From positions 1,054,001-1,118,000 of the forward strand of contig NW_002476212.1 in assembly GCF_000189635.1 (NCBI RefSeq): a stretch of DNA of 64,000 nucleotides, written 5' to 3'. The notes under the pieces were generated by a model that saw only the letters and a program-made list of their open reading frames with translations, had not been told where the DNA came from and searched no databases. Shown in pieces: positions 15,737-55,929 of the stretch (positions are counted from its first letter, which is position 1; each line of letters opens with the position of its first letter). The stretch is from Tetrahymena thermophila SB210 (lineage: Eukaryota > Ciliophora > Oligohymenophorea > Hymenostomatida > Tetrahymenidae). The position numbers and the translations under genes were made by a program.

Positions 15737-16353
15737 ATGTCAGAAAAAATTACCCTTGGCTGTTGGAATACACTTGGCAAAGCTCAACCTTCAAGATACT
15801 TACTTGAACTATCGGGAGTTAAATATGAAGAATTTAGATACTCTTATCCTGCTGTAGAATGATTTGGTAGAGACAAATATGTTTTGGGATTACCTTTTCC
15901 TAATTTACCTTATCTCTTAGATGGGGAAGTAATAATCACTGAGAGTGAAACCACTTTTGACTATTTAATTTAAAGATTAAATAAAGTTGAGCTTTTAGGT
16001 TAGGGAAACGATATATACATTGTTGATAAGCTTAAAAATATGTTTTCTGATATTGGAACGAGAATGTACAATTATAGCTAGAAGGAGGGAGAAGAATAAA
16101 CTAAATTCTTAAGTGAGTAAATCCTTCCTAAAATAAGAGACATTCATAAAATTTTAGGTAAAAAAGAGTACTTACTTAGATATTTTACAGCTGCTGATTT
16201 GTATTTCTTATGCTTTGCAAAAGGATTTAAAAATACTCTTCCTGATTCTTACAATGAATTTGCTGTAACTTTTAATTCATTGATATCAAGACTTGAGAAT
16301 ATCCCCTAAATTGAATGCTAAGTATATTTCAGAAGGTCATCCATCATCCATGA
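15737..16353 (+). pseudogene. Glutathione S-transferase pseudogene (copy A2)
   Basis: The sequence is close to GST-A1 along its whole length but carries two lesions. Codon 42, TGG (Trp) in GST-A1, is TGA here (15860-15862), a stop in this code. Near 16314, a four-base insertion (ATTGAATGCTAAG against ATTGCCAAG) shifts the frame and destroys the conserved end. Other changes hit conserved positions, such as Tyr to Cys in the LGYW motif (TGTTGG) and Gly to Arg near LLGYF. The MITE of unit 1 is absent upstream. A partial 41-residue product would not be an enzyme. Confidence 0.92.
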
Positions 16354-17347
16354 ATTAAAATACTTTTTATATTTAATAGTATTATTTAATTTAAAAACTT
16401 TTTATAAAATTCTTTTGTATTTAGAAATTAGCTTTAAGGTGAATTTACAAATATAATAACTTAATTAAAATATGTTCATGATCTAAAGAAATTAATTTGA
16501 ATTAAATTCTAATTTTAATTATTCATAAATTTTTATCTAATTTGATTTGTTTGTTAAAAATATAGTTGATTCACTTATAAAATTATAGAAATTATTTTAT
16601 TTTTAGGATTTTAATTATCAAATAGTTTTTATTTTGAATATAACAAAATCTTTCAACTATTTAAGGTCATTTTAAATTTATTTTGTTTAATTTCAATAGT
16701 ATTTCTATTTTATTCAATTTTTTTCAGTTAAATTTATTTTATAAAAATAACAAAATATTTTTTAGAGCTTTTTTTATTCTTTTTTGATAATTTATTTATA
16801 ATAAGATATATTTCAAAGATTTATAATTCAATTAATAAATTAAACCCTTCAAATCAATATATTTTATTTTAATGTTTTTTTGTTTATGCTTTTACTTTTT
16901 AAACTTCTTTTTTTATTATCAAATATATGAGGATAAATTTAAAGAAAATAGCAATTATTTATATTTAGTACAATAAAAAAGTATTTATTTGGTTTCTTTA
17001 TTGTAAATTCATGACAAATAATCTAAAAATATAAGGGGTTATATATAAATATTTATTGTTTACTTAACTTATGAAATTTTAAATGACGTAGTAAATTTAA
17101 ACCTTGTGAGAAATAGTTATTAGCTTAAATGCTTATAATACGTATTACCTCAAAAATAAAAAAAGAGAATTACTTTTAAATTATTGTTATGAATATATTT
17201 TTATTTGCTTTCTTTTTGTTTCATTTAAAACGATTCTAAAGTTGTAAACGGACTCATCGAATTTCTAAATTTTTGAGATTTTTTAAATTTCTTAAAAAAT
17301 TATTAATTAAAGTAGAGAAGAATAATCAAGTTTATTTAGAAGAAGAA
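16354..17347. other. Spacer between GST-A2 pseudogene and kinase
   Basis: AT-rich, colinear with 8976-9879 of unit 1 with indels; an extra stretch near 17080-17170 (TAAATGACGTAGTAAATTTA region) has no obvious partner there. The 60 bases before the kinase ATG are nearly identical in both units. No gene seen. Confidence 0.55.
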
Positions 17348-27039: not shown

Positions 27040-27765
27040 TTAACTAATTAACTTACTTACTAAAAAAGTATAAAGTAATAGATTTTTTTAATAAAATTAT
27101 TCTGGTAATTTAACTCATTTGAAAAAACTTATATAAAAATTTACTTAAAATAAATATATAAAAAAACATTTATAATTAATATAAATAAAAAAACCTAATT
27201 AACTACTTTATGATAAATATTCTTCTAAATACATTATATATAAAAACTAACTTTTTACATGTATTCAAAAATTTATATTTTATATTCTTAATATTATTAT
27301 AATTAATTTATATCTTACAGATAAGTTAGCATTTAATTTAAAAAATTAAAACTTTTCTTGATAAAGATAAAATGTAATTATTTGTAATAAATTTATGATA
27401 TTTAATTATGTTAGAATATCAATATGTATGTTTAACTCTCACTTTTAAAATTAATCAAAAATTTTTATTTTCATATATTTTTTCTAATAGATAAGAGATT
27501 AGCTTATTTTTTAATGTCAATTATACTTGTAATAAAAAAAAAAACAATTAAATAAAACCCTTTTATTTAGAATTATATATAAACAGATGACGAAATATTT
27601 AAAATAGATCATTTTTAAATTTATAATACTAATCTCAGTATCTGGATTTATTATATATATTCTTTTGGTTAAGGAATAAAAGCGTGTGTCAACTTTTTCT
27701 ATTTTTAATATTTGATATAAAGAAATTAAAGTTGAAAAAAAACAAATAATAAAAAAATAAAAAAA
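26699..27765. other. Spacer with (CTAA)n microsatellite
   Basis: It holds a tetranucleotide array of about 15 units at about 26990-27055. From about 27290 on it resembles 30200-30659, the flank of the next paralogue, so the duplication includes upstream DNA. No gene seen. Confidence 0.65.
26990..27055. repeat. (ACTA)n / (CTAA)n microsatellite
   Basis: An uninterrupted run of ACTA units, degenerating at the right end into TTAACTAATTAACTTACTTAC. Confidence 0.95.
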
Positions 27766-29106
27766 ATGGCAAACATCTACTAATAAGAAAATATGCTTAC
27801 AACCAAAAATTTACTGATTGATGATAATCTTTAATATAATGACAGTTCCTATTATTCTTAACTTGGAACTTTGACTTCTACTTAAACAAATGATCATAGT
27901 TATCTAAAAAATTCTGATACATCAGAATGCTCCACTAAGAAACTTTTAGTAGATAAGTAAGATGAAAATAAAAACGAAATGAATGATTAATACTTAAAAA
28001 TTCTGGCTATTCCTGATATATTTTCATTTTAAAATGATGATAGCTTCGAAGAATAATTTAAAGCTTACTAAGAAGATCAACTGCTGCAAAAAAAAGAAAC
28101 AAACATTTTCACTGATAATAATAACTATAATTAATATCAACAAATTCATGAAAGCCCGCTCTTCGATGAGGAAGAAAGCATTAAATTTTAAAAGAATGAG
28201 TAATTTTAAATGAATTAATATACTTATCAAGCTTAATAATTTGAAAATAATTCTTTTTATCCTCAATGCGCCAATTAATAATACCAAGTTAAATAATAAA
28301 AATATTCAAACTATTTTGACAATTATATTTATACAGAAAATGATTTTGAAGAATAGGAAGGTCTATTTAATTAAGAATCTTCTTAATAATAAAATTATAG
28401 TCAATTTGAAATTTATTAACAGATGAATTAAAAAATGTTTAACAATAACAACTTTATTCCTATTAACTTTACATAAACATAAGAATAAACAGTAACTTTA
28501 TAACCATTAATTAATGGCTAAAATACTCGAAATAACTGTTAAATTGAATAAATTAAACCTATACAACTTAATTAGCTTGAAGATAATTAATAATAATTAG
28601 AATAATAATAAGAAATTCAAAACGATCTCTAAAAATTTGATGTTTCAATTGAGAATAAAACAATAGTTTCAATTGAGAATAAAACAATAGTTTCAATTGA
28701 GAATAAAACAATAAAAAAAAGAAACAGAAAAAGAAAGCAAAACTTAGTAGGAGAAGATTAGTGCTAAGAAACTAAAAATATAGCAAATAACATTTTCATA
28801 TTTTTATTTGAATAGATAAAAGAATATGGTTATGAAATAAAATAAACTTAAAAAGGCTACATATCTATAAGCAACTTTAATAAAATTTTGACTGAAGAGT
28901 TGAAAAAATAACCTGATTTAAAGAAAATTTTATTAGATATTGTAAATTCAAGCTTAATAAAAAAAGCAACAAATACTAATAACTACAAAACAATGTTCAA
29001 AGTTATTAAATATAAAGCAGGTCTAGAAGTCATGATACAGAATCCTGGCAAATTTAGATCAATAAAAGAAGCTACTAATTATGCTTTTTAAAAATAATAA
29101 AAATGA
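27766..29106 (+). CDS. Unknown protein with conserved C-terminal domain, paralogue 1
   Basis: The product is 446 residues, without introns. The N-terminal two thirds are acidic and Asn/Gln-rich with weak conservation. It then has a basic stretch KKRNRKRKQ near residue 320, which could be a nuclear localisation signal. A C-terminal domain of about 120 residues follows with normal composition: CQETKNIANNIFIFLF, KEYGYEIK, FNKILTEEL, NSSLIKKATN-NNYKTMFKVIKYKAG and MIQNPGKFRSIKEA. This domain is the best-conserved part against the paralogue at 30660. Just before the basic patch an 8-residue unit, VSIENKTI, is repeated three times as perfect 24-base repeats. I do not recognise the family. A DNA-linked role is only suggested by the basic patch. 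Confidence 0.75.
28642..28713 (+). repeat. Three perfect 24-base tandem repeats in coding sequence
   Basis: GTTTCAATTGAGAATAAAAC followed by AATA occurs three times without change and adds 8 codons per unit. The paralogue at 30660 has a single related stretch (APIEKQIKKKR), so the expansion is recent. Confidence 0.95.
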
Positions 29107-30659
29107 TAATTAATTAATTAATATAATAATTTAACTTATTTTAATGTTGTTTATTTTTCTTTTAAATTTATTTTAATTTTATTCATTCTTTTTCTTCCCA
29201 AAAGTAAGTTAATTTTTTTATTATGTAAATAAATAAATAAATAAATACAATCAATATTTATTTTTTCGTCAATTCATAAAATACAAGTAAATTTTTAATC
29301 CTATACTTGATACTATTATTTTTTTCACCTGTGGTTTTAGGAAATATTTCTTTTTTCTAAGTGGATTAGTTTAAATAAGTATTAATTACAATGCTGGTAA
29401 AGTGTCAATTTTTTTTATAAGCACCAGATTAAAAAAAAATTTCTCAAGTTCTTGAAAGTAGACTATTTACAAAATCTGATCATATTTTGAATCAAAATAA
29501 GTTTATTTTATATAATCTTCAAATAAAAAATATTATTATAAACATTAATTAAGTTAAACAATCAAAATTTTTAAAAGATTAAGAGTAAATTTTACAATTT
29601 CAAAAAAATAAAAATACTCCTTAATATAAAAATAAAAGCTTAATTATGAAATTACATAGTAAGTATGTAAATACTTTAAATTTATTTTAAATTGAAAATA
29701 AATTAATAAAATTATTGATAAATAAAATATAATATGTAATAGTTAAAAGTGAATTTTACTTTTTTAATAATTTCTAATTTATTCTGATCAAAAAAATTTA
29801 GAGCCTATTTTGATTTAATTAAAAAGCATCTATATCAAAAACTAAAAGAAAAATTAAGTATCTATCTTTCTTTTCTAATAGTTTATCTATATCATTAATC
29901 ATTATTTGCTGTTTGTATCTTTAGTATTAGATCCACTAATTAATTTATTTATAAATATCTAAATGCTAGTTATGTGAACTATCTATTATTTGTAAAAAAT
30001 GAAGTATAAAACTTTAGTTATAAGTTTAAAGTTAGTTTTTATGATTTTGTTTCATTCATCTTAATAATTCTACATTAGATTAAAGCTTTCAAGAGAAAAG
30101 AATTATTTTTAAAATAGTTTAATTTATTAATTAATTTATATATATATATAACTAAATATTTCACTGTATTCTAAAAATTTTATCTATCTTTTAAATTTTC
30201 AGTATATTAACTCTACCAGCAACCAAATTTTTATAAATTAAGAATTCTTTACAGATGGCATAGCATCTAATTTATAAATGAAAGCTTTTCTTGAAAAATA
30301 AATAATATAATTTAATGAAATAAATTTATAGTATTTAATTATCCTAGACTATCATAATGTTTAACTCTTACAAATTGTACATTTATTTATATGAAATATA
30401 AGAAATTAGCTTATTTTTTCTTTATATCAATTAAATTTGAAATAAAAAAAAATAATTAATAAATAATCCTTTTATTTTTATTATAAATAAATGACGAAAT
30501 ATCGAAATAAATCAGATTAGATTGTATGCAATATTTAAATTAATATTAGCAATTCCAAAAATATCTTGATTTATAATTTTTTTGGCTGTGAACTTTTTTT
30601 GTTTTCAATATTTCATAAAGAAATTAAAGTTAAAAAAAAACAAAAATAAAATCTAAAAA
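29107..30659. other. Spacer between the two paralogues
   Basis: AT-rich. Its first part (about 29107-29570) matches 31878-32320 downstream of paralogue 2, and its last part (about 30200-30659) matches 27290-27765. The duplicated segment is therefore about 2.3 kb and includes both flanks. No separate gene. Confidence 0.65.
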
Positions 30660-31877
30660 ATGCAAAACATCAACTAAACAGAAATAATGTTGACAACAAA
30701 AAATTATTTGATTGATGGTCATCAAGATAATGAAAGTTTAGATTATTCCTAACTTAGAACTATGACTTCTACTTAAACACACGACCATAATAATCTAAAT
30801 AACTTTAATGGATCAGAAAACTCTACTTAGAAGCTAAGAGTTGATAAACAAGATGAAAATAAAAGAGAAATTCATAATGAATACTTAAATCTTTTAGCTG
30901 TTACTGATAATTATTTTAATGATGATAGCTTCGAAGAATAAATTAAAGCTTACTAGGAAGATCTATCTTTGCAAAAAAATGATATAAATTTTTTCTTTGA
31001 TAATACTAACTACAATAAATATCAACAAACTCATGAAAACCTGTTCTTGAGTGAGGAAGAAAACCTAAACATTCAAAATAATGATTAATTTTAAATGTAA
31101 TAAAATACTTTCTTGAATGATGAAGAAAAACTGTTCGTGAATAACGATGAAAACCTTTTCTAGGAAGATCAAGAAAACCTAAAGATTTAATTGAATGGTT
31201 AATTTTAAATTTAATAAAATAATAATCCAGCTAAATAATTAGAATATAACCCTTTTTATCCACAATACGCAAATTAATAATTAAATTATTTAAACTACCC
31301 AATTAACGCAGAAAATGATTTTGAATAGTAAGAATGTCTATTTAATTAAGAATCTTCTGAAGATTAAAATGAACTTTAAATTTATTAACGGATGGATTTC
31401 AACTACTAAAATGAATAAAATATAGAAACTCCCCCTAAATGTGCTGCTCCAATTGAGAAATAAATCAAAAAAAAAAGAAACAGAATTAAAAAATAAAATT
31501 AACTAGGCGGAGATAAGTGCTAAGAAACAAAAAATTTAGCAAATATCATTTTCAGATTTTTATTTCAAAGAGTAGAAGAATTTGGTTATAAAATAGAATA
31601 TAGTGGAAAAGGAAGCATTGGATTTACTAAATTTAATAATATTTTAATTGAAGAATTGAACAAATTATCAAATGATGATTAACAAAATTTAATAAACGTT
31701 TTCATACAAATTGTCAATACAAGCTTAATAAAAAAAGCCATAAATTCTAAAAATTACAAAACTATGTACGAAATTATTAAATATAAAGAAGGACTATAAG
31801 TTATGATATAGAATCCTGGCAAATTTAATTCAATAAAAAGAGCTAATGATTACGCAATTAAATAATATTAAAAATGA
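30660..31877 (+). CDS. Unknown protein with conserved C-terminal domain, paralogue 2
   Basis: The product is 405 residues without introns, 41 shorter than paralogue 1. The shared order is an N-terminal MxTTKN-LID-D start, acidic Asn/Gln-rich middle, FNQESSEDQ-type patch, basic KKKRNRIKK patch, then the conserved domain with KCQETKNLANIIFRFLF, EEFGYKIE, NNILIEELNK, SLIKKAINSKNYKTMYEIIK and NPGKFNSIKRA. Two or three copies of a DEEKLFVNNDENLF-type motif in the middle replace sequence missing from paralogue 1. Function unknown. Conservation concentrated in the last 120 residues suggests that this is the working part. Confidence 0.75.
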
Positions 31878-43690: not shown

Positions 43691-46600
43691 ATGTCTTAAA
43701 TAGTTCAAATCTAAGAATTAATTGAATAGCTAGTTTCAGTTAGTCAAAAGTAGCACCTTTAACCAGAGCTCAATGTCATCATAGAACAGTTATCATAGAC
43801 TGTATTACACCGCTCTTAGCAAAGGCGTAAAAAATCAGTTTGCTATTCTTTTGCTGATATGATCGAATTCGATAGGGCTCTTGTCAATTTTGAGGCTGTT
43901 TCCGAGTAACTAGGTGACTTAGATGTTGCAAAATTAGTAATTCTTATTTATTTACAACTCAAAAAATGACTAATTCATTTTATATTTTTGTATTATAAAG
44001 ACTTAAACCACATTGATAATCTTTGAGATGATGAAAATGATTATGGAATAAGCTGCTACTACTAAAAAGCCCTTCCAAAATTAAGTTTAGAGTGTTAACT
44101 AAATTCTAAATAACAAAATCTAATCTATCTCCAAGAATTTCCCTAATCACTTAGCTCATACTAAGACAATATAAGATGGTCTCTCATCAGTATACTGGGT
44201 TTTTAGTGTAATATTGATTATATTTATATAATTATTACTTATTTTTAATAATATTTGTAATTTGAAAAATAAAAATATTTTAGGAAAATCCTAAGACTAG
44301 CATAGATACTGCTATTGAAAATACTGCTTACGGATATAACAAATTGAAATAACATGGTAACGAGCTTCTTTCCTAATGGGGAGCATACTTTAACAAAGCA
44401 CTTAAAGCTCTCAGTGGTAAATATTTATTTACACTTTTCATAAAAAAGCTCAAAAGAAATATAATAATTTAATATCTTTGCATAATTAAAATAATTTTTA
44501 ATATTAATTGTTTCTTAAATCATATTAAAAAATAAATATGGTCAAAATTATTTTAGAATATTATTAAAATATATTATTAGATGTTAATTTTTCGTATTAT
44601 TTTCATTTAATAATTCATTCTAAAATTAATTAGATTATGTTCAATAACATTATGCTCATGGTTTAATCTGGAACAGTAAGGGTGAAGGAGACTTCTCAGA
44701 GTTAGTTAGCCATTTGAGAGCAGAAATTAGAGTTACATTAGATAGATAATTAGTAGATTTATCATAAAATCCAGACACAGTTACTCCTCTTTAATAGAAA
44801 CCTTCATAAAGCTAACCAACTTAGGTTAAAGAAACAAGCCAATAAACTTAAGTGTAAGCTTAGACTCAACTCCCTCCTCCTCCGTAACCTGTTCAATAAT
44901 AGCAACCAACTGTAGTAGAACCAGTTATTTAATAATAATAGCAACCCTAAGCACCAGTATAAGTTTAAGCACCCGTAATATAATAAACTTAAGCTCCTTC
45001 TGTGTAGCCTTAAGTTCATGCATAAAAGTAATAATTCTAATCTCACTACCCTACAATGACAGAATTTGACCAACATGTGAAAGACTACCTATCTGCAGGA
45101 GAAAAATTGGATTCTGAGCTCTAAGAATTAACATAACTCACTGTAAAAGCTTTTGAGTAGATGAAGATTGTCATGCAATTTTCAAAATATCTCAAAAAAC
45201 CATAACAAGATAACATAAAATAAATTTCAAGTATCTTAAATGATAAAGTTTTTAAGCCAATCAACTCTGCAAAGGCAGGAATTAAATATCCTAACCACTT
45301 AAAAACTGTAATTTAAGGTATCTCTGCTGTTAACTGGGTCATTTGTGTAAGTTTCATTTTTTTTAAAACTTGAAAAATTAATTAAAATTTAAAAAAATAA
45401 GGACACTCCTAAAATATATATTGACAACGGTATAGAATCTTCAGAATTCTATGGAAACAAAATTTTGCTCATGAAAGTACCAGAGCACACTGCTTGGAAT
45501 AATGCTTTTAAGGCAGTATTAAAGTCTCTTTTACGTAAGAATAAAATTTACAAACTAATTAAATTTAATTTAACTAATTTTATGAATTAGCATATGTTTT
45601 AACTAACTACTCTACTGGTTTACTATGGAATTTCCAAGGAACTGATGATTACTCTGAATTATATTCAGTTTTAAAAGGTGAAAAATAGTTAGAAGATGTT
45701 ATTGCTTCTAAGAGCGGAGCTCAATAAACACAATCTCATGTACCCGTTTTATAAAGTGCACCTTAACCTTAATCAGATGCTTATCCTCCTATGACTGAAT
45801 TTGAAAAACATTTATCTGATTTCAAGGCTGCCTATCAAAATTTAGACCCTTTAATTAAGGAATTATCAGATTTTATTGTCTAATCTTTTGAATCTATGTA
45901 AACAGTTATGACTTTTGCTAAAAAACTCAAAAAGCCATAACCAGAAAATGTTAAACAAATATAAACAATTTTAAATGATAAAATATTTAAACCTATGAAT
46001 GCCAGTAAAGCAGGAATTTCATTCCCTAACCACTTTAAAACTGCACTTTAAGGTATTTCAGCTGTCCTTTGGGTCATTAGTGTAAATAAATTATAAAATT
46101 ATTTTTTAATTAACTATATTACATAAATCAAAGGAAACACCTAAGCTTTCATTGGATAATGGTATTGAATCATCAGAATTCTATGGAAATAAAATCCTAC
46201 TTATGAAACAACCTGAGCACACAGCTTGGTATAACACTTTTAAGGCTTCTCTTAAATCTCTCGTTCGTATAATAATCACTTTGCAATATTTTGCTTTATT
46301 AATATATTTTTTAAAAAAAAGCATATGTTTTAATGAATTTCAGTACTGGTCTATTGTGGAATTTCCATGGTACAGATGATTACAGCGAGTTGTACTCAAT
46401 TCTTAAAGGTGAAAAAAAAGTTGAATAACCTACTTAAGTTACTAACATACCTCCTCCTCCTATTGGCATGCCACCACCTCCCCCTCCTCCTATGCTTAAT
46501 ATTGAACAAATTAAATTAGAAGATTTCAAAGGCTCTAACGAAGAATCAGGTGAATCAAGAACTGCTCTTTTAAGTGCTCTTAATGTAGGAGAAGATGCTA

Positions 46601-47488
46601 TTAAAGCTCGTAATTGACCAAATAAATATTTTATAAAAATTATTATTAAAACTAATTTTTCTATAAATAAAGATTTGAAGCATGTTAAAAAAGGTGAAAA
46701 GTATGAAAAGAAATCTACATAAGCTCCAACTAATGCAGCTCCTAGCTCTAACACAATAAAGAAAGAAACATAATAATAAGTAAAAGAACCTAAAAAATAT
46801 CAAAAAGATAACTGGTTTGTGGTAAGCATTAAGTTTTCTTTTGTTAAATAAATATATTTATTATTCTAAAACTAGGAAAATTATGTAAATGAAAGAATTT
46901 AATTTGATGAAGGAGAAATTTCTCTTAAATAATCTTTGTTTATTGAAGGCTGCAATAATTCCACAATTATTGTGAAGGGCAAGGTTAAATCTGTTTTCGT
47001 TAATAAATGCAAGAAAACAAAAGTTTTGGTTACTGTAATTATTATATATTAATATAGAAGCATTATAATAAACATTATAATTTAAATTAAAAGAATGCAG
47101 TATCTGGTGTTGAAACAGTTGATTGCTAATCTTGTGAAGTTTATATTGCTGAAGGGTATGAAATTAAAAAGATATTTTTAGATTAATTAACTTATTGTAA
47201 TAAAAATAGAGTTCCTTCTATATAAATTGACAAGAGTGACACAATCCGTGTTATCTTTTTAAAGAGCAAGATTTGCGATATTGTCACTTCAAAGAGTAGC
47301 GGTATTAATGTTACTTATGCTCTTAATGAAGAAGGAGATATGGAGGTAATTTAAAAATAATTTTTTGATTTAAATTAAAATTCGTTTAAAATAAAAAGAA
47401 AGACACACCTATACCTGAATAATTCATAACAAAATGGGACAGCGATAAAAATACTTTTGTTACTGTAACTTTAGACACATTCCTATGA
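43691..47488 (+). CDS. Cyclase-associated protein (CAP/Srv2) with three N-terminal helical domains
   Basis: Twelve exons: 43691-43936, 44001-44207, 44284-44416, 44634-45346, 45402-45534, 45591-46081, 46134-46266, 46322-46609, 46673-46821, 46876-47034, 47094-47345, 47399-47488 (997 residues; usual CAPs are about 475-530). CAP recycles actin: the helical domain acts on cofilin-bound filament ends, the WH2 and CARP domains on ADP-actin. Three CAP-N-type helical domains occur, near residues 85-225, 340-505 and 545-715. Repeats 2 and 3 share LKKPQ, LNDKVFKP/LNDKIFKP, QGISAV-WVI, NGIESSEFYGNKILLMK, PEHTAW and TGLLWNF. Pro/Gln linkers separate them. Then come PPPPIGMPPPPPPP, a WH2-like ALLSALNVGEDAIKARHLKHV and a CARP beta-helix (FIEGCNNSTIIVKGKVKSV, VTSKSSGINV, PIPEQF). 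The start is the first ATG of the open frame. Confidence 0.94.
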
Positions 47489-53349: not shown

Positions 53350-54213
53350 TAATAAATAAGTGGCGAAAAAAGGATGATTAAATATTTGAATAATAGAATT
53401 TAATATGTTTTATTATATATTTTTTTGAAAAAGCATTTTTAACCTAAAATATAGATACCTAAATAGATAGATAGATTTTATTATTGTTTTTTATATTTTT
53501 ATAAATAAAACCATATAAATTAATAAATAATTTACAAAAAACAAAAAAATTAAATTTACTTTAATAAATTAATATCATATTAAGGAATTTATTTTTTATT
53601 TATCTTGATTAATTAGATGAAATTTTTAATGATAATATGTTTGTTGAAAAATTGAATTTTTAAGGACTATTCATGTAAAATTTATTGTAGGTTGAATAGG
53701 ATACGACACATCTTTATAAAGGATTTAATGTCATTACATTTACAGCTTATGGTGGGTAAGTAAAATTTTTAATTAATATTAGTTGTTTTTTAACTAAAAA
53801 TGGAGGTTTCCTTTTCAAATTTAGCAAAAAATTAAAATTTCTTTTTCAAACATTTTTTTAAAATGAATCTAATTCTCAAAGTTATTGAAGTTTATAATAC
53901 CTACCTACAACTAATATTTTTCTCTATCTATTTTTTAAATATTAAATTTTAATCTTTAAATTGTTGATATTTATTTATCTACGAGAATAAAATAGAAATA
54001 ATAATTTTAACAGGACTTGAATAAAAAAGTTATTATAAAAAGAATTTAATATTTCAGTATTTATAAAATTTAAAGTTATTATTAATTAAAAAGTGCTTTA
54101 ATTATCCCGATAATTGGAAAGATCTTTTAAATTTCAAATCTTAAAATATTAAAAAAAAGAGTGGGAAAATAAAGAGGTAGAAACAATTTATAGAGTAACA
54201 CAATATTGAAAAA
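53350..54213. other. Spacer with weak coding hint
   Basis: Mostly AT-rich. A short stretch near 53690-53760 (TATGGTGGGTAAGTAAAA) has a splice-donor-like end but no start or partner exon that I could support. Confidence 0.45.
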
Positions 54214-55929
54214 ATGCCAGGCAATGATGATGATGATGGATTTGATGACTTCATTAATTAATTGAAGGAAAAAAAGGAGCATTTAAAAGTGAAATTATAG
54301 GGAGGAAGCGAAGAAATTCGCAAGCCCAAAAAGCCATTAACTATCTTTTTAAGATTCCACATGGAGAAGTTTAATTAAATAAAAATGAAAAATCAAGATT
54401 GGACACCTAATATGATAACTCAATATTTAAAGAAGCAATGGGAGAGCATGAGTGAGGCTTAAAAAGAAAGATATATCTAGACCTACGAATAGGATTTTAA
54501 AAAGTATAATAAGTTAATTGACCTTTACAACAAGCTCACTCTTAAACCTAAGAAACCTATTACTCCTTATTTTTAATTTTTTTCTGAAAATATTGAAGTA
54601 TATTTAAAGAATTACCCTGAAAAATCGCATAATGAAATCACTAAATTGATTGGAGATGATTGGAATAATTTTGATTCCAAAAAAAAAAGTGAGATGAAAA
54701 AAGATTATGAAAAATAGAAGCAACTTTATGAAGTCTAGTTACAAAAATTTAAGTAAAGAGAAAATAACTATATAAAATATGATGACTATAATCAAAAACT
54801 AGAAGATTATGAAAAGGAGTTAGAAGAAGAATTAGATAATATCCGTTCTAAATTCCCAAAAGTTGCATCAACCATTCCAAAAAAGAAAAATTAGAAATAG
54901 AATTCAAAAGATAAATAAAATTTAAAGGATGAAAAACAACAATAGAAGGATGAAAGCGAACAAGAATAGGAAGATCTTGAAGTGAAAATTGAAGAAGAAG
55001 ACGAACAAGGTTTAGATAAAGAAGATGAGGATGAAGGATAAGAAGAAGAAGAAAATTTATCAAATGAAAGTGATTAAAAAAGAAATAAAAGCAAATCAAA
55101 AAGTAAGAAAGTTTAAAAGGAGACCTAAAAAGCTTCAAATAATAAAAGAGAGTAAAAAGAGTAAAAGTTAAAAGAAAAATCAGATAATAAAATAGATAAA
55201 GCCATTAAAGCAGCATAAGAAGAGGGCAGATCAGGATTAAGAAAGAGGGAAGCAACTAAATAAACTAAAACTTAAGAAAATGAAAATAAATAAGTAGAAA
55301 GAAGTGTATCTAAATCCTTAAAAACAAGATCATCTTCTAAAAAAGCATAAGAGCATACTAAAATGAAAAGATCAAGATCTTAAATTGCACTTAAACAGTA
55401 ATAAGAAAAAGAGGAATCAAGTAAATAAGTGCCATAAGTAGCTAAAAGATCATCATCTTAATAGTCTTAAAATGTTACTTCTAAAGATAGTTAACAAAAA
55501 AAAACAAAGAATTAGGAAGCATCCAGATCTTCAACTAGAATTAAAGAGTAGAAGCTCAATGTAAAGAAAGAAGCATCAAAAAAGGTTGAAAATGATAAAA
55601 AGAAAGATGAAAAGAAAAAAGAAGTTTAAAGAGAAAGTTTAAAAAATATAAAAATCTTAAAAAGAAAGAATAAAGATAGAGATGCACAAGATGATGAAGT
55701 AGAAGAAGATATCGAAGAGACTGTTCAAAAAAAATAAAAACTTGTTCAAGAAAAAATTATCACACACATATTAGGAATGAGAGAATATAGAGGCAAAGTT
55801 AAATATTTATTAAGATTGAAAAATGATGAGTAATACTGGGCTAAGAGAGATGATCCTATTTTTAACGAAAATAAAAACCAATAAAAGTTGTCTGTATTCT
55901 TAAAGTAAATTAAAAAACAAAAAAAGTGA
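54214..55929 (+). CDS. Two-HMG-box protein with chromodomain-like C-terminus
   Basis: It encodes 571 residues in one exon. The acidic start PGNDDDDGFDD is followed by HMG box A (about 40-103: KPLTIFLRFHMEKF, DWTPNMITQYLKKQWESM, KERYIQTYEQDFKKY) and HMG box B (about 113-178: KPITPYFQFFSENI, YPEKSHNEITKLIGDDW, KKDYEKQKQLY). Then comes a coiled coil, an acidic patch (EEEDEQGLDKEDEDEG), a long Lys/Ser-rich basic region, and a C-terminal module EKIITHILGMREYRGKVKYL-LRLKNDEQYWAKRDDP that looks like a chromodomain. A nuclear DNA-bending and chromatin-binding role is expected. Box A keeps the conserved Trp/aromatic core. The HMG part is firm; the chromodomain call rests on the GKVKYLLRLK strand and following W. 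Confidence 0.86.

What the first reader, a model, noticed from the sequence alone, without database searches (positions are those of the whole stretch)
43691..46440. Cyclase-associated protein with a triplicated helical domain
The predicted 997-residue CAP has three tandem CAP-N domains instead of one. CAP normally oligomerises to bring several such domains to filament ends; three in one chain would give the same avidity in a single polypeptide. I know of no described CAP with this layout.
Basis: partly seen in the sequence, partly recalled or inferred. Interest (0 to 1): 0.85.

Follow-up and report, generated by a model that had tools for sequence, protein, structure and literature searches.

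The report
Actin-recycling protein with tripled end-binding domain
A ciliate of the genus Tetrahymena encodes an actin-recycling protein (CAP) that carries three copies of the domain that grips filament ends, two of them with the known actin-gripping residues, where well-studied CAPs have one copy and gather several by clustering.

Summary
A spliced gene in ciliate code (12 exons, window 43691-47488) encodes 997 residues: three CAP-N helical folded domains (HFDs; residues 57-219, 337-501, 545-709), polyproline, a WH2 motif and CARP. Each HFD alone passes Pfam's CAP_N cut-off (54.8, 87.8, 75.2 bits against 27). Two introns recur at the same places and phases in all three, around exons of 133 nt: an old DNA-level duplication. 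HFD2/HFD3 are 67% identical, dS 1.57, dN 0.23: not an assembly tripling. The genome's TERT piece equals a PDB TERT 93/93 (Tetrahymena thermophila by recall).

The three are not equal. HFD2 and HFD3 keep the Phe-Tyr pair needed for actin binding in mouse CAP1; HFD1 has Tyr-Gly and a shorter loop. Best reading: HFD2 and HFD3, 43 residues apart, supply in one chain the two HFDs that published work places on the two terminal actins; CARP dimerisation could bring six. Loss of N-terminal oligomerisation is not shown. Ten paper searches showed no description of this layout. New variant of a known kind; other ciliates untested.

The parts
43691..47488 (+). CAP gene, 12 exons: 43691-43936, 44001-44207, 44284-44416, 44634-45346, 45402-45534, 45591-46081, 46134-46266, 46322-46609, 46673-46821, 46876-47034, 47094-47345, 47399-47488 (TGA stop)
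   Evidence: 11 introns of 52-217 nt, sites picked by hand as GT-AG in frame, 997 aa with code 6
43691..43747 (+). residues 1-19, possible N-terminal oligomerisation helix
   Evidence: resembles human CAP1 residues 1-20 (4 identities, Met1 among them; 336 of 20000 shuffles reach the score); Pfam PF01213 not hit; inconclusive
43859..44704 (+). HFD1, residues 57-219 (exons 1-4)
   Evidence: PF21938 54.8 bits; Tyr-Gly at the Phe162-Tyr163 site
44705..45055 (+). Q/P-rich linker HFD1-HFD2, residues 220-336 (117 aa)
45056..45661 (+). HFD2, residues 337-501 (exons 4-6)
   Evidence: PF21938 87.8 bits; 1S0P E 1.9e-14, 6RSQ 1.9e-08; Phe-Tyr kept
45662..45790 (+). short linker HFD2-HFD3, residues 502-544 (43 aa)
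45791..46392 (+). HFD3, residues 545-709 (exons 6-8)
   Evidence: PF21938 75.2 bits; 1S0P E 6.3e-10; Phe-Tyr kept
44284..44416 (+). exon 3, 133 nt, phase 0 in / phase 1 out (HFD1)
45402..45534 (+). exon 5, 133 nt, same phases (HFD2)
46134..46266 (+). exon 7, 133 nt, same phases (HFD3)
46450..46491 (+). polyproline tract, residues 729-742
46558..46686 (+). WH2 motif, residues 765-786, ending in LKHV as mouse CAP1 270-273; split by intron 8
   Evidence: mouse letters from a passage of PMC5951797
46792..47467 (+). CARP / CAP_C domain, residues 822-991 (exons 9-12)
   Evidence: PF08603 114.6 bits (cut-off 23.8); 2B0R, 6FM2, 1K8F

Best explanation
This is the only CAP gene found in this genome, with its HFD module triplicated in tandem inside the gene. 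It most likely works as an actin-filament end depolymerase and monomer recharger in which the two HFDs wanted at a filament's pointed end are supplied in cis: HFD2 and HFD3, 43 residues apart, grip the D-loops of the two terminal cofilin-bound actins and loosen the last subunit; WH2 and CARP then exchange its ADP for ATP, and profilin is recruited by the polyproline tract. CARP dimerisation would give a two-chain particle with six HFDs, four of them with the Phe-Tyr pair, equal in number to the six of a CAP hexamer. HFD1 is a diverged copy, probably auxiliary (spacer, weaker or altered binding). Shown by sequence: the layout, the shared intron positions, constraint on HFD2 and HFD3, the Phe-Tyr pair in HFD2/3, conservation of the actin residues contacted. 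Inferred: actin binding, pointed-end action, CARP dimerisation, the division of labour between the HFDs.
For: Layout. One gene: CAP_C over the cut-off at this locus only (2 of 3 matches at E up to 1; the third, on C214, is below the cut-off and was not followed up); CAP_N matches only here and in a 734-nt copy beside an assembly gap. HFD2/HFD3 dN 0.226, dS 1.574 over 165 codons. Phe162-Tyr163, whose mutation disrupts HFD binding to cofilin-actin (PMC6876575, passage), is F-Y in HFD2 and HFD3. The best actin match in the genome keeps the contacted Met47, Lys50 and Glu57 (read; numbering recalled). A cofilin match of 98 bits and two profilin exons just over the cut-off (26.4 and 26.2 bits against 25) are present. 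Published: pointed-end depolymerisation is proposed to need two HFDs on the two terminal actins, and a GST-dimerised HFD acts at much lower concentration than the monomer (PMC6876575, passages); tetramers and trimers of N-CAP beat dimers, and dimers beat monomers (PMC6888645, passages); CAP is reported as hexamer or tetramer (PMC7543520 section 15).
Against: The Arg118/Glu119 ion pair of the mouse HFD is kept in none of the three (Asn/Ser, Asn/Ala, gap), although its partners on actin are. Of ten CARP residues mutated in mouse CAP1 groups 5, 6, 7 and 9 I read three as kept (Lys347, Lys365, Asp446) and seven as changed (Tyr351, Tyr353, Asn367, Asp372, Tyr418, Phe447, Glu449) from the alignment, with mouse numbering taken as human minus one. 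PDB entry 9q7o is titled 'One CAP-1 Bound to the Pointed End of F-actin', so a single HFD at an end can be seen. HFD3 matches the mouse HFD only weakly by sequence (E 0.0014) and HFD1 matched no mouse chain. Linker reach and geometry were not modelled. No transcript or protein data. A structure prediction of the first four helices of HFD2 was of low confidence and no PDB match was significant.
Confidence: 0.5

Rival explanations
1. The extra HFDs add a different function: side-binding or crosslinking of filaments, or docking of another partner (HFD1 in particular, by its changed contact site), with end depolymerisation done by one HFD as usual.
For: HFD1 differs at the contact site and loop yet still matches CAP_N over profile positions 6-159 of 159; the first linker is long and Q/P-rich (117 aa). 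N-CAP is said to bind filament sides as well as pointed ends (PMC10638096, passage).
Against: HFD2 and HFD3 are constrained and keep the same contact pair, which points to the same ligand for both.
Confidence: 0.25
2. The extra copies are a tolerated duplication with no distinct mechanism; the protein oligomerises through an N-terminal helix and CARP like any CAP, so the count of HFDs per particle is simply higher than needed.
For: Residues 1-20 resemble the human CAP1 helix (4 identities, Met1 among them; 336 of 20000 shuffles reach the score).
Against: dN/dS near 0.14 between HFD2 and HFD3 (dS near saturation) argues that both have been kept by selection; Pfam's PF01213 coiled-coil model did not match at E up to 1, and a heptad score of residues 3-18 is no better than shuffles (10652 of 20000) while the human helix is (263 of 20000).
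Confidence: 0.2
3. Gene-model or assembly error: separate genes or a tripled region wrongly read as one.
For: A 734-nt stretch of this gene occurs again, 100% identical, beside a 4743-base run of N on another contig, so this assembly holds at least one doubtful copy of part of it. No RNA evidence; splice sites picked by hand.
Against: The three domains differ too much to be one sequence assembled thrice (37.7%, 37.7%, 67.3% identity); exons 4, 6 and 8 each join two parts without a splice; there is no run of N in the window.
Confidence: 0.04

Closest known systems
Canonical cyclase-associated protein (CAP1/CAP2, yeast Srv2, Dictyostelium CAP)
   Same: HFD, polyproline, WH2 and CARP in the same order; HFD2 matches the Dictyostelium and mouse HFD structures by sequence
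   Different: One HFD per chain, gathered by an N-terminal coiled coil into tetramers or hexamers (PMC7543520 sections 5 part 1 and 15); here three HFDs per chain
Apicomplexan CAP (Plasmodium, Toxoplasma, Cryptosporidium 2B0R)
   Same: CARP domain; 2B0R is the second-best PDB match of the whole protein; apicomplexans and ciliates are both alveolates (recalled)
   Different: Apicomplexan CAPs lack CAP_N altogether (PMC4501334, passage); this one has three
Chromera CAP (Cvel_8488.t1)
   Same: An alveolate CAP said to have both CAP_N and CAP_C (PMC4501334, passage)
   Different: The passage gives no count of CAP_N domains; its sequence was not seen here
Engineered HFD dimers and trimers (GST-HFD; artificial coiled coils)
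   Same: Raise HFD number per particle and raise activity (PMC6876575 and PMC6888645, passages)
   Different: Made in the laboratory and oligomerised by association of chains; here encoded in one chain

Membership tests
CAP / Srv2 | Helical folded domain (CAP_N, PF21938) | tested here: met
   3 stretches; each alone over the cut-off of 27 bits: 54.8, 87.8, 75.2
CAP / Srv2 | C-terminal CARP domain (CAP_C, PF08603) | tested here: met
   residues 822-991, 114.6 bits, cut-off 23.8; 2B0R and 6FM2
CAP / Srv2 | WH2 domain between HFD and CARP | tested here: met
   by motif, no profile hit: LKHV at 783-786 with upstream R..L...L, as in mouse R253, L256, I260, 270-LKHV-273
CAP / Srv2 | Polyproline tract before WH2 | tested here: met
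   residues 729-742
CAP / Srv2 | N-terminal coiled-coil oligomerisation domain (PF01213) | tested here: inconclusive
   no PF01213 hit at E up to 1; ungapped similarity to human CAP1 reached by 401, 336 and 1452 of 20000 shuffles over 18, 20 and 24 residues; heptad score reached by 10652 of 20000 shuffles, human control 263 of 20000
CAP / Srv2 | One HFD per chain (usual layout, not strictly defining) | tested here: not met
   three HFDs
CAP / Srv2 | Actin-contact residues Phe162-Tyr163 of the HFD | tested here: met
   met in HFD2 and HFD3 (F-Y), not in HFD1 (Y-G)
CAP / Srv2 | Ion pair Arg118/Glu119 of the HFD | tested here: not met
   N/S, N/A, gap in HFD2, HFD3, HFD1; a detail of the mouse interface, not a defining feature of the family
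CAP / Srv2 | Binding to cofilin-actin and nucleotide exchange on actin | not testable with these tools
   needs protein

The most novel reading that the evidence does not exclude
Tetrahymena CAP moved multivalency from assembly into the chain: the HFD2-HFD3 pair occupies both terminal actins from a single molecule, so pointed-end depolymerisation no longer depends on an N-terminal coiled coil, and a CARP dimer alone reproduces the six-HFD particle.
Probability: 0.35. Interest if true: 0.65.

Novelty: new variant of a known kind. Interest (0 to 1): 0.5.

Why it matters
Why CAP must oligomerise, and how many HFDs act at one filament end, has been approached with engineered dimers and trimers. 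A natural chain with two HFDs that keep the known contact pair and one that does not, in an organism with gene knock-out and expression tools (recalled), lets the question be tested by changing one domain at a time. It also sets this ciliate against its apicomplexan relatives, whose CAPs lack the HFD entirely (PMC4501334, passage).

Tried and rejected
Assembly tripling: rejected on divergence between copies. A second CAP gene: the C116 matches looked like one but are a 734-nt exact copy of window 44622-45355 (exon 4 plus 12 and 9 nt) lying against a run of N at C116:742534-747276; I take it as a misjoined contig end or a very recent partial copy, not a gene. A lone diverged HFD gene elsewhere could have been missed: HFD1's own exons did not ring with the Pfam family, though they did with the HFD2 protein (E 1.3e-5 and 0.0094); two bacterial controls rang below the cut-off. 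Pfam PF01213 as a CAP_N probe: it is now the 43-position coiled-coil model, and it rang neither in G000 nor in the 14 controls. Relatives in viral contigs and genome contigs: 117 and 69 pattern matches, none confirmed; by their descriptions these hold viral, bacterial and archaeal contigs, so this says nothing on other ciliates. Structure: helices 1-4 of HFD2 (window 45044-45346, aligned with window 45779-46081 and 44001-44207) gave four helices but mean pLDDT 66.9; Foldseek found 163 matches at E up to 10 and 0 at 0.001 or better; five CAP HFD chains (9q7o_W, 1s0p_A, 6rsq_D, 6rsw_C, 6rsq_C) are among the 50 shown, with E 1.8 to 3.2, which is not significant.

Full report
What was checked. The region was read in NCBI code 6 (TAA and TAG as Gln, TGA stop). 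Splice sites were picked by hand as GT-AG in frame; alternatives were not scored. The whole protein matches Pfam CAP_N (PF21938) in 3 stretches at E 4.2e-56 and CAP_C (PF08603) at 4.4e-33; scanned apart, the three N-terminal domains score 54.8, 87.8 and 75.2 bits, all over the cut-off of 27. Against PDB sequences HFD2 reaches Dictyostelium 1S0P at 1.9e-14 and mouse 6RSQ at 1.9e-08, HFD3 reaches 1S0P at 6.3e-10 and mouse 6RSW at 0.0014, HFD1 reaches 1S0P at 2.1e-05 and no mouse chain up to E 10. Organism names of these entries are from titles or recalled.

Is it one chain? The links between domains lie inside exons. Exon 4 carries the end of HFD1, the whole 117-residue linker and the first part of HFD2; exon 6 the end of HFD2, the 43-residue linker and the first part of HFD3; exon 8 the end of HFD3, the polyproline tract and most of WH2. 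None has a TGA in the coding frame, while the other two frames hold 1 to 9 each. The open frames alone are modest evidence (179, 597 and 1945 of 10000 mononucleotide shuffles are also free of TGA); the conserved domains on both sides make them strong. There is no run of N in the window.

How it arose. In each HFD one intron falls after a W-V-F/I-S/C stretch in phase 0 and a second splits, in phase 1, the codon before Y-V, and the exon between them is 133 nt in all three (exons 3, 5, 7). So a DNA segment with both introns was copied within the gene. HFD2 and HFD3 are 67.3% identical (111 of 165), HFD1 is 37.7% identical to each (60 of 159); by protein identity the copy that gave HFD2 and HFD3 is the younger, but a faster-changing HFD1 would look the same. 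Between HFD2 and HFD3 pS is 0.658 and pN 0.195 over 165 codons (dS 1.574, dN 0.226): old, and under purifying selection. For the other two pairs dS is without limit (HFD1-HFD2) and 1.455 (HFD1-HFD3), so synonymous sites cannot order the events.

Whose genome. G000 has 101,022,631 bases in 445 contigs and the window is C288:1054001-1118000. A 93-residue piece of its telomerase reverse transcriptase is identical, 93 of 93, to PDB 2R4G; the listing names the molecule only, and that 2R4G comes from Tetrahymena thermophila is recalled. CAP_C matches over the cut-off lie at this gene only (two exons; a third match on C214, below the cut-off, was not followed up). CAP_N matches lie here and in an exact 734-nt copy of exon 4 on C116 that lies against a 4743-base run of N. 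One cofilin match of 98 bits, two profilin exons on C81 just over the cut-off and an actin gene (460 bits) are present, so partners of a CAP are encoded. Such genome searches score the best candidates only and go exon by exon.

Which HFDs can bind actin. In the mouse HFD-actin structure Phe162 and Tyr163 hold the D-loop region, mutating them disrupts binding, Arg118 and Glu119 pair with actin Glu57 and Lys50, and actin Met47 sits in a cavity of the HFD (PMC6876575, passages; one figure legend there writes Tyr162 and Phe163). In a five-sequence alignment (three domains, Dictyostelium 1S0P, mouse 6RSQ) HFD2 and HFD3 have Phe-Tyr, HFD1 has Tyr-Gly, has eight residues fewer than mouse (six fewer than HFD2) in the loop before the conserved Asn-His, and three more after it; the ion pair is absent from all three. 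The best actin match reads MPGIMVGMDQKECYVGEEAQ at the D-loop, which keeps Met47, Lys50 and Glu57 by recalled numbering. So the main aromatic contact is predicted for two domains, and part of the mammalian interface is not carried over.

C-terminal half. The WH2 motif ends in LKHV, the same letters as mouse 270-273, whose replacement abolished ATP-actin binding and nucleotide exchange (PMC5951797, Table 1 passage). CARP is clear by profile, but of ten residues in mouse mutant groups 5, 6, 7 and 9 I read three as kept (Lys347, Lys365, Asp446) and seven as changed (Tyr351, Tyr353, Asn367, Asp372, Tyr418, Phe447, Glu449 to Asp) from the alignment, with mouse taken as human minus one. Exchange on actin is therefore likely from the family, not shown by residues.

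Mechanism. Published work proposes that depolymerisation from pointed ends needs two HFDs on the two terminal actins, whose N-termini come within 5 nm, and that joining HFDs lowers the concentration needed (PMC6876575, passages); [quoted passage not shown] A 43-residue linker between HFD2 and HFD3 could span such distances (inference, not modelled). Two chains joined through CARP would hold six HFDs, the number in the reported hexamer (PMC7543520 section 15). Against this, a 2026 PDB entry is titled as one CAP-1 bound to the pointed end (title only), and the N-terminal helix may still oligomerise the protein (similarity to human CAP1 reached by 336 of 20000 shuffles over 20 residues, but a heptad score no better than shuffles).

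What is known. For PMC7543520 I read section 5 (part 1 of 2) and section 15; for PMC6876575 the abstract and passages; for PMC6888645, PMC5951797, PMC10638096, PMC12713339, PMC6785269, PMC4501334 and PMC7581878 passages. PMC4501334 reports that apicomplexans lack CAP_N, that Vitrella shows a like loss, and that Chromera has both domains. The library holds open-licence papers only, and no other ciliate genome or general protein database could be searched, so the layout may be common in ciliates and may be listed in automatic annotation.

Verdict. It belongs to the CAP family and is a new variant of it.

Noticed in passing
G000 C116:741800-742533 (L009/L011), against N run C116:742534-747276: A 734-nt stretch 100% identical to window 44622-45355 (exon 4 plus 12 and 9 nt of intron) on another contig, ending at a 4743-base run of N: misjoin or very recent partial copy.
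   Followed up: partly
window 27736-29106 and 30570-31877, + strand: Two neighbouring Q/N-rich open frames with alike starts (MLTTKNLLID, MLTTKNYLID) and alike ends (VMIQNPGKF), so probably a tandem gene pair; the first had no Pfam match at E 0.001, the second was not scanned.
   Followed up: partly
window 53968-55929, + strand: Open frame with two HMG-box stretches (PF00505, 1.6e-16) and a long charged tail.
   Followed up: no
window 15863-16930, + strand: Open frame with a weak glutathione S-transferase C-terminal match (22.6 bits, cut-off 21.6).
   Followed up: no
window 44417-44633: Intron 3 of the CAP gene is 217 nt, about four times its counterparts in HFD2 and HFD3 (56 and 55 nt).
   Followed up: no
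window 46792-47467: The CARP domain carries an insertion of about 18 residues relative to human CAP1 (alignment).
   Followed up: no
G000 C214:509501-509677 (L022): A CAP_C-like match of 20.8 bits, below the cut-off of 23.8; could be a distant CARP-type domain of another protein.
   Followed up: no
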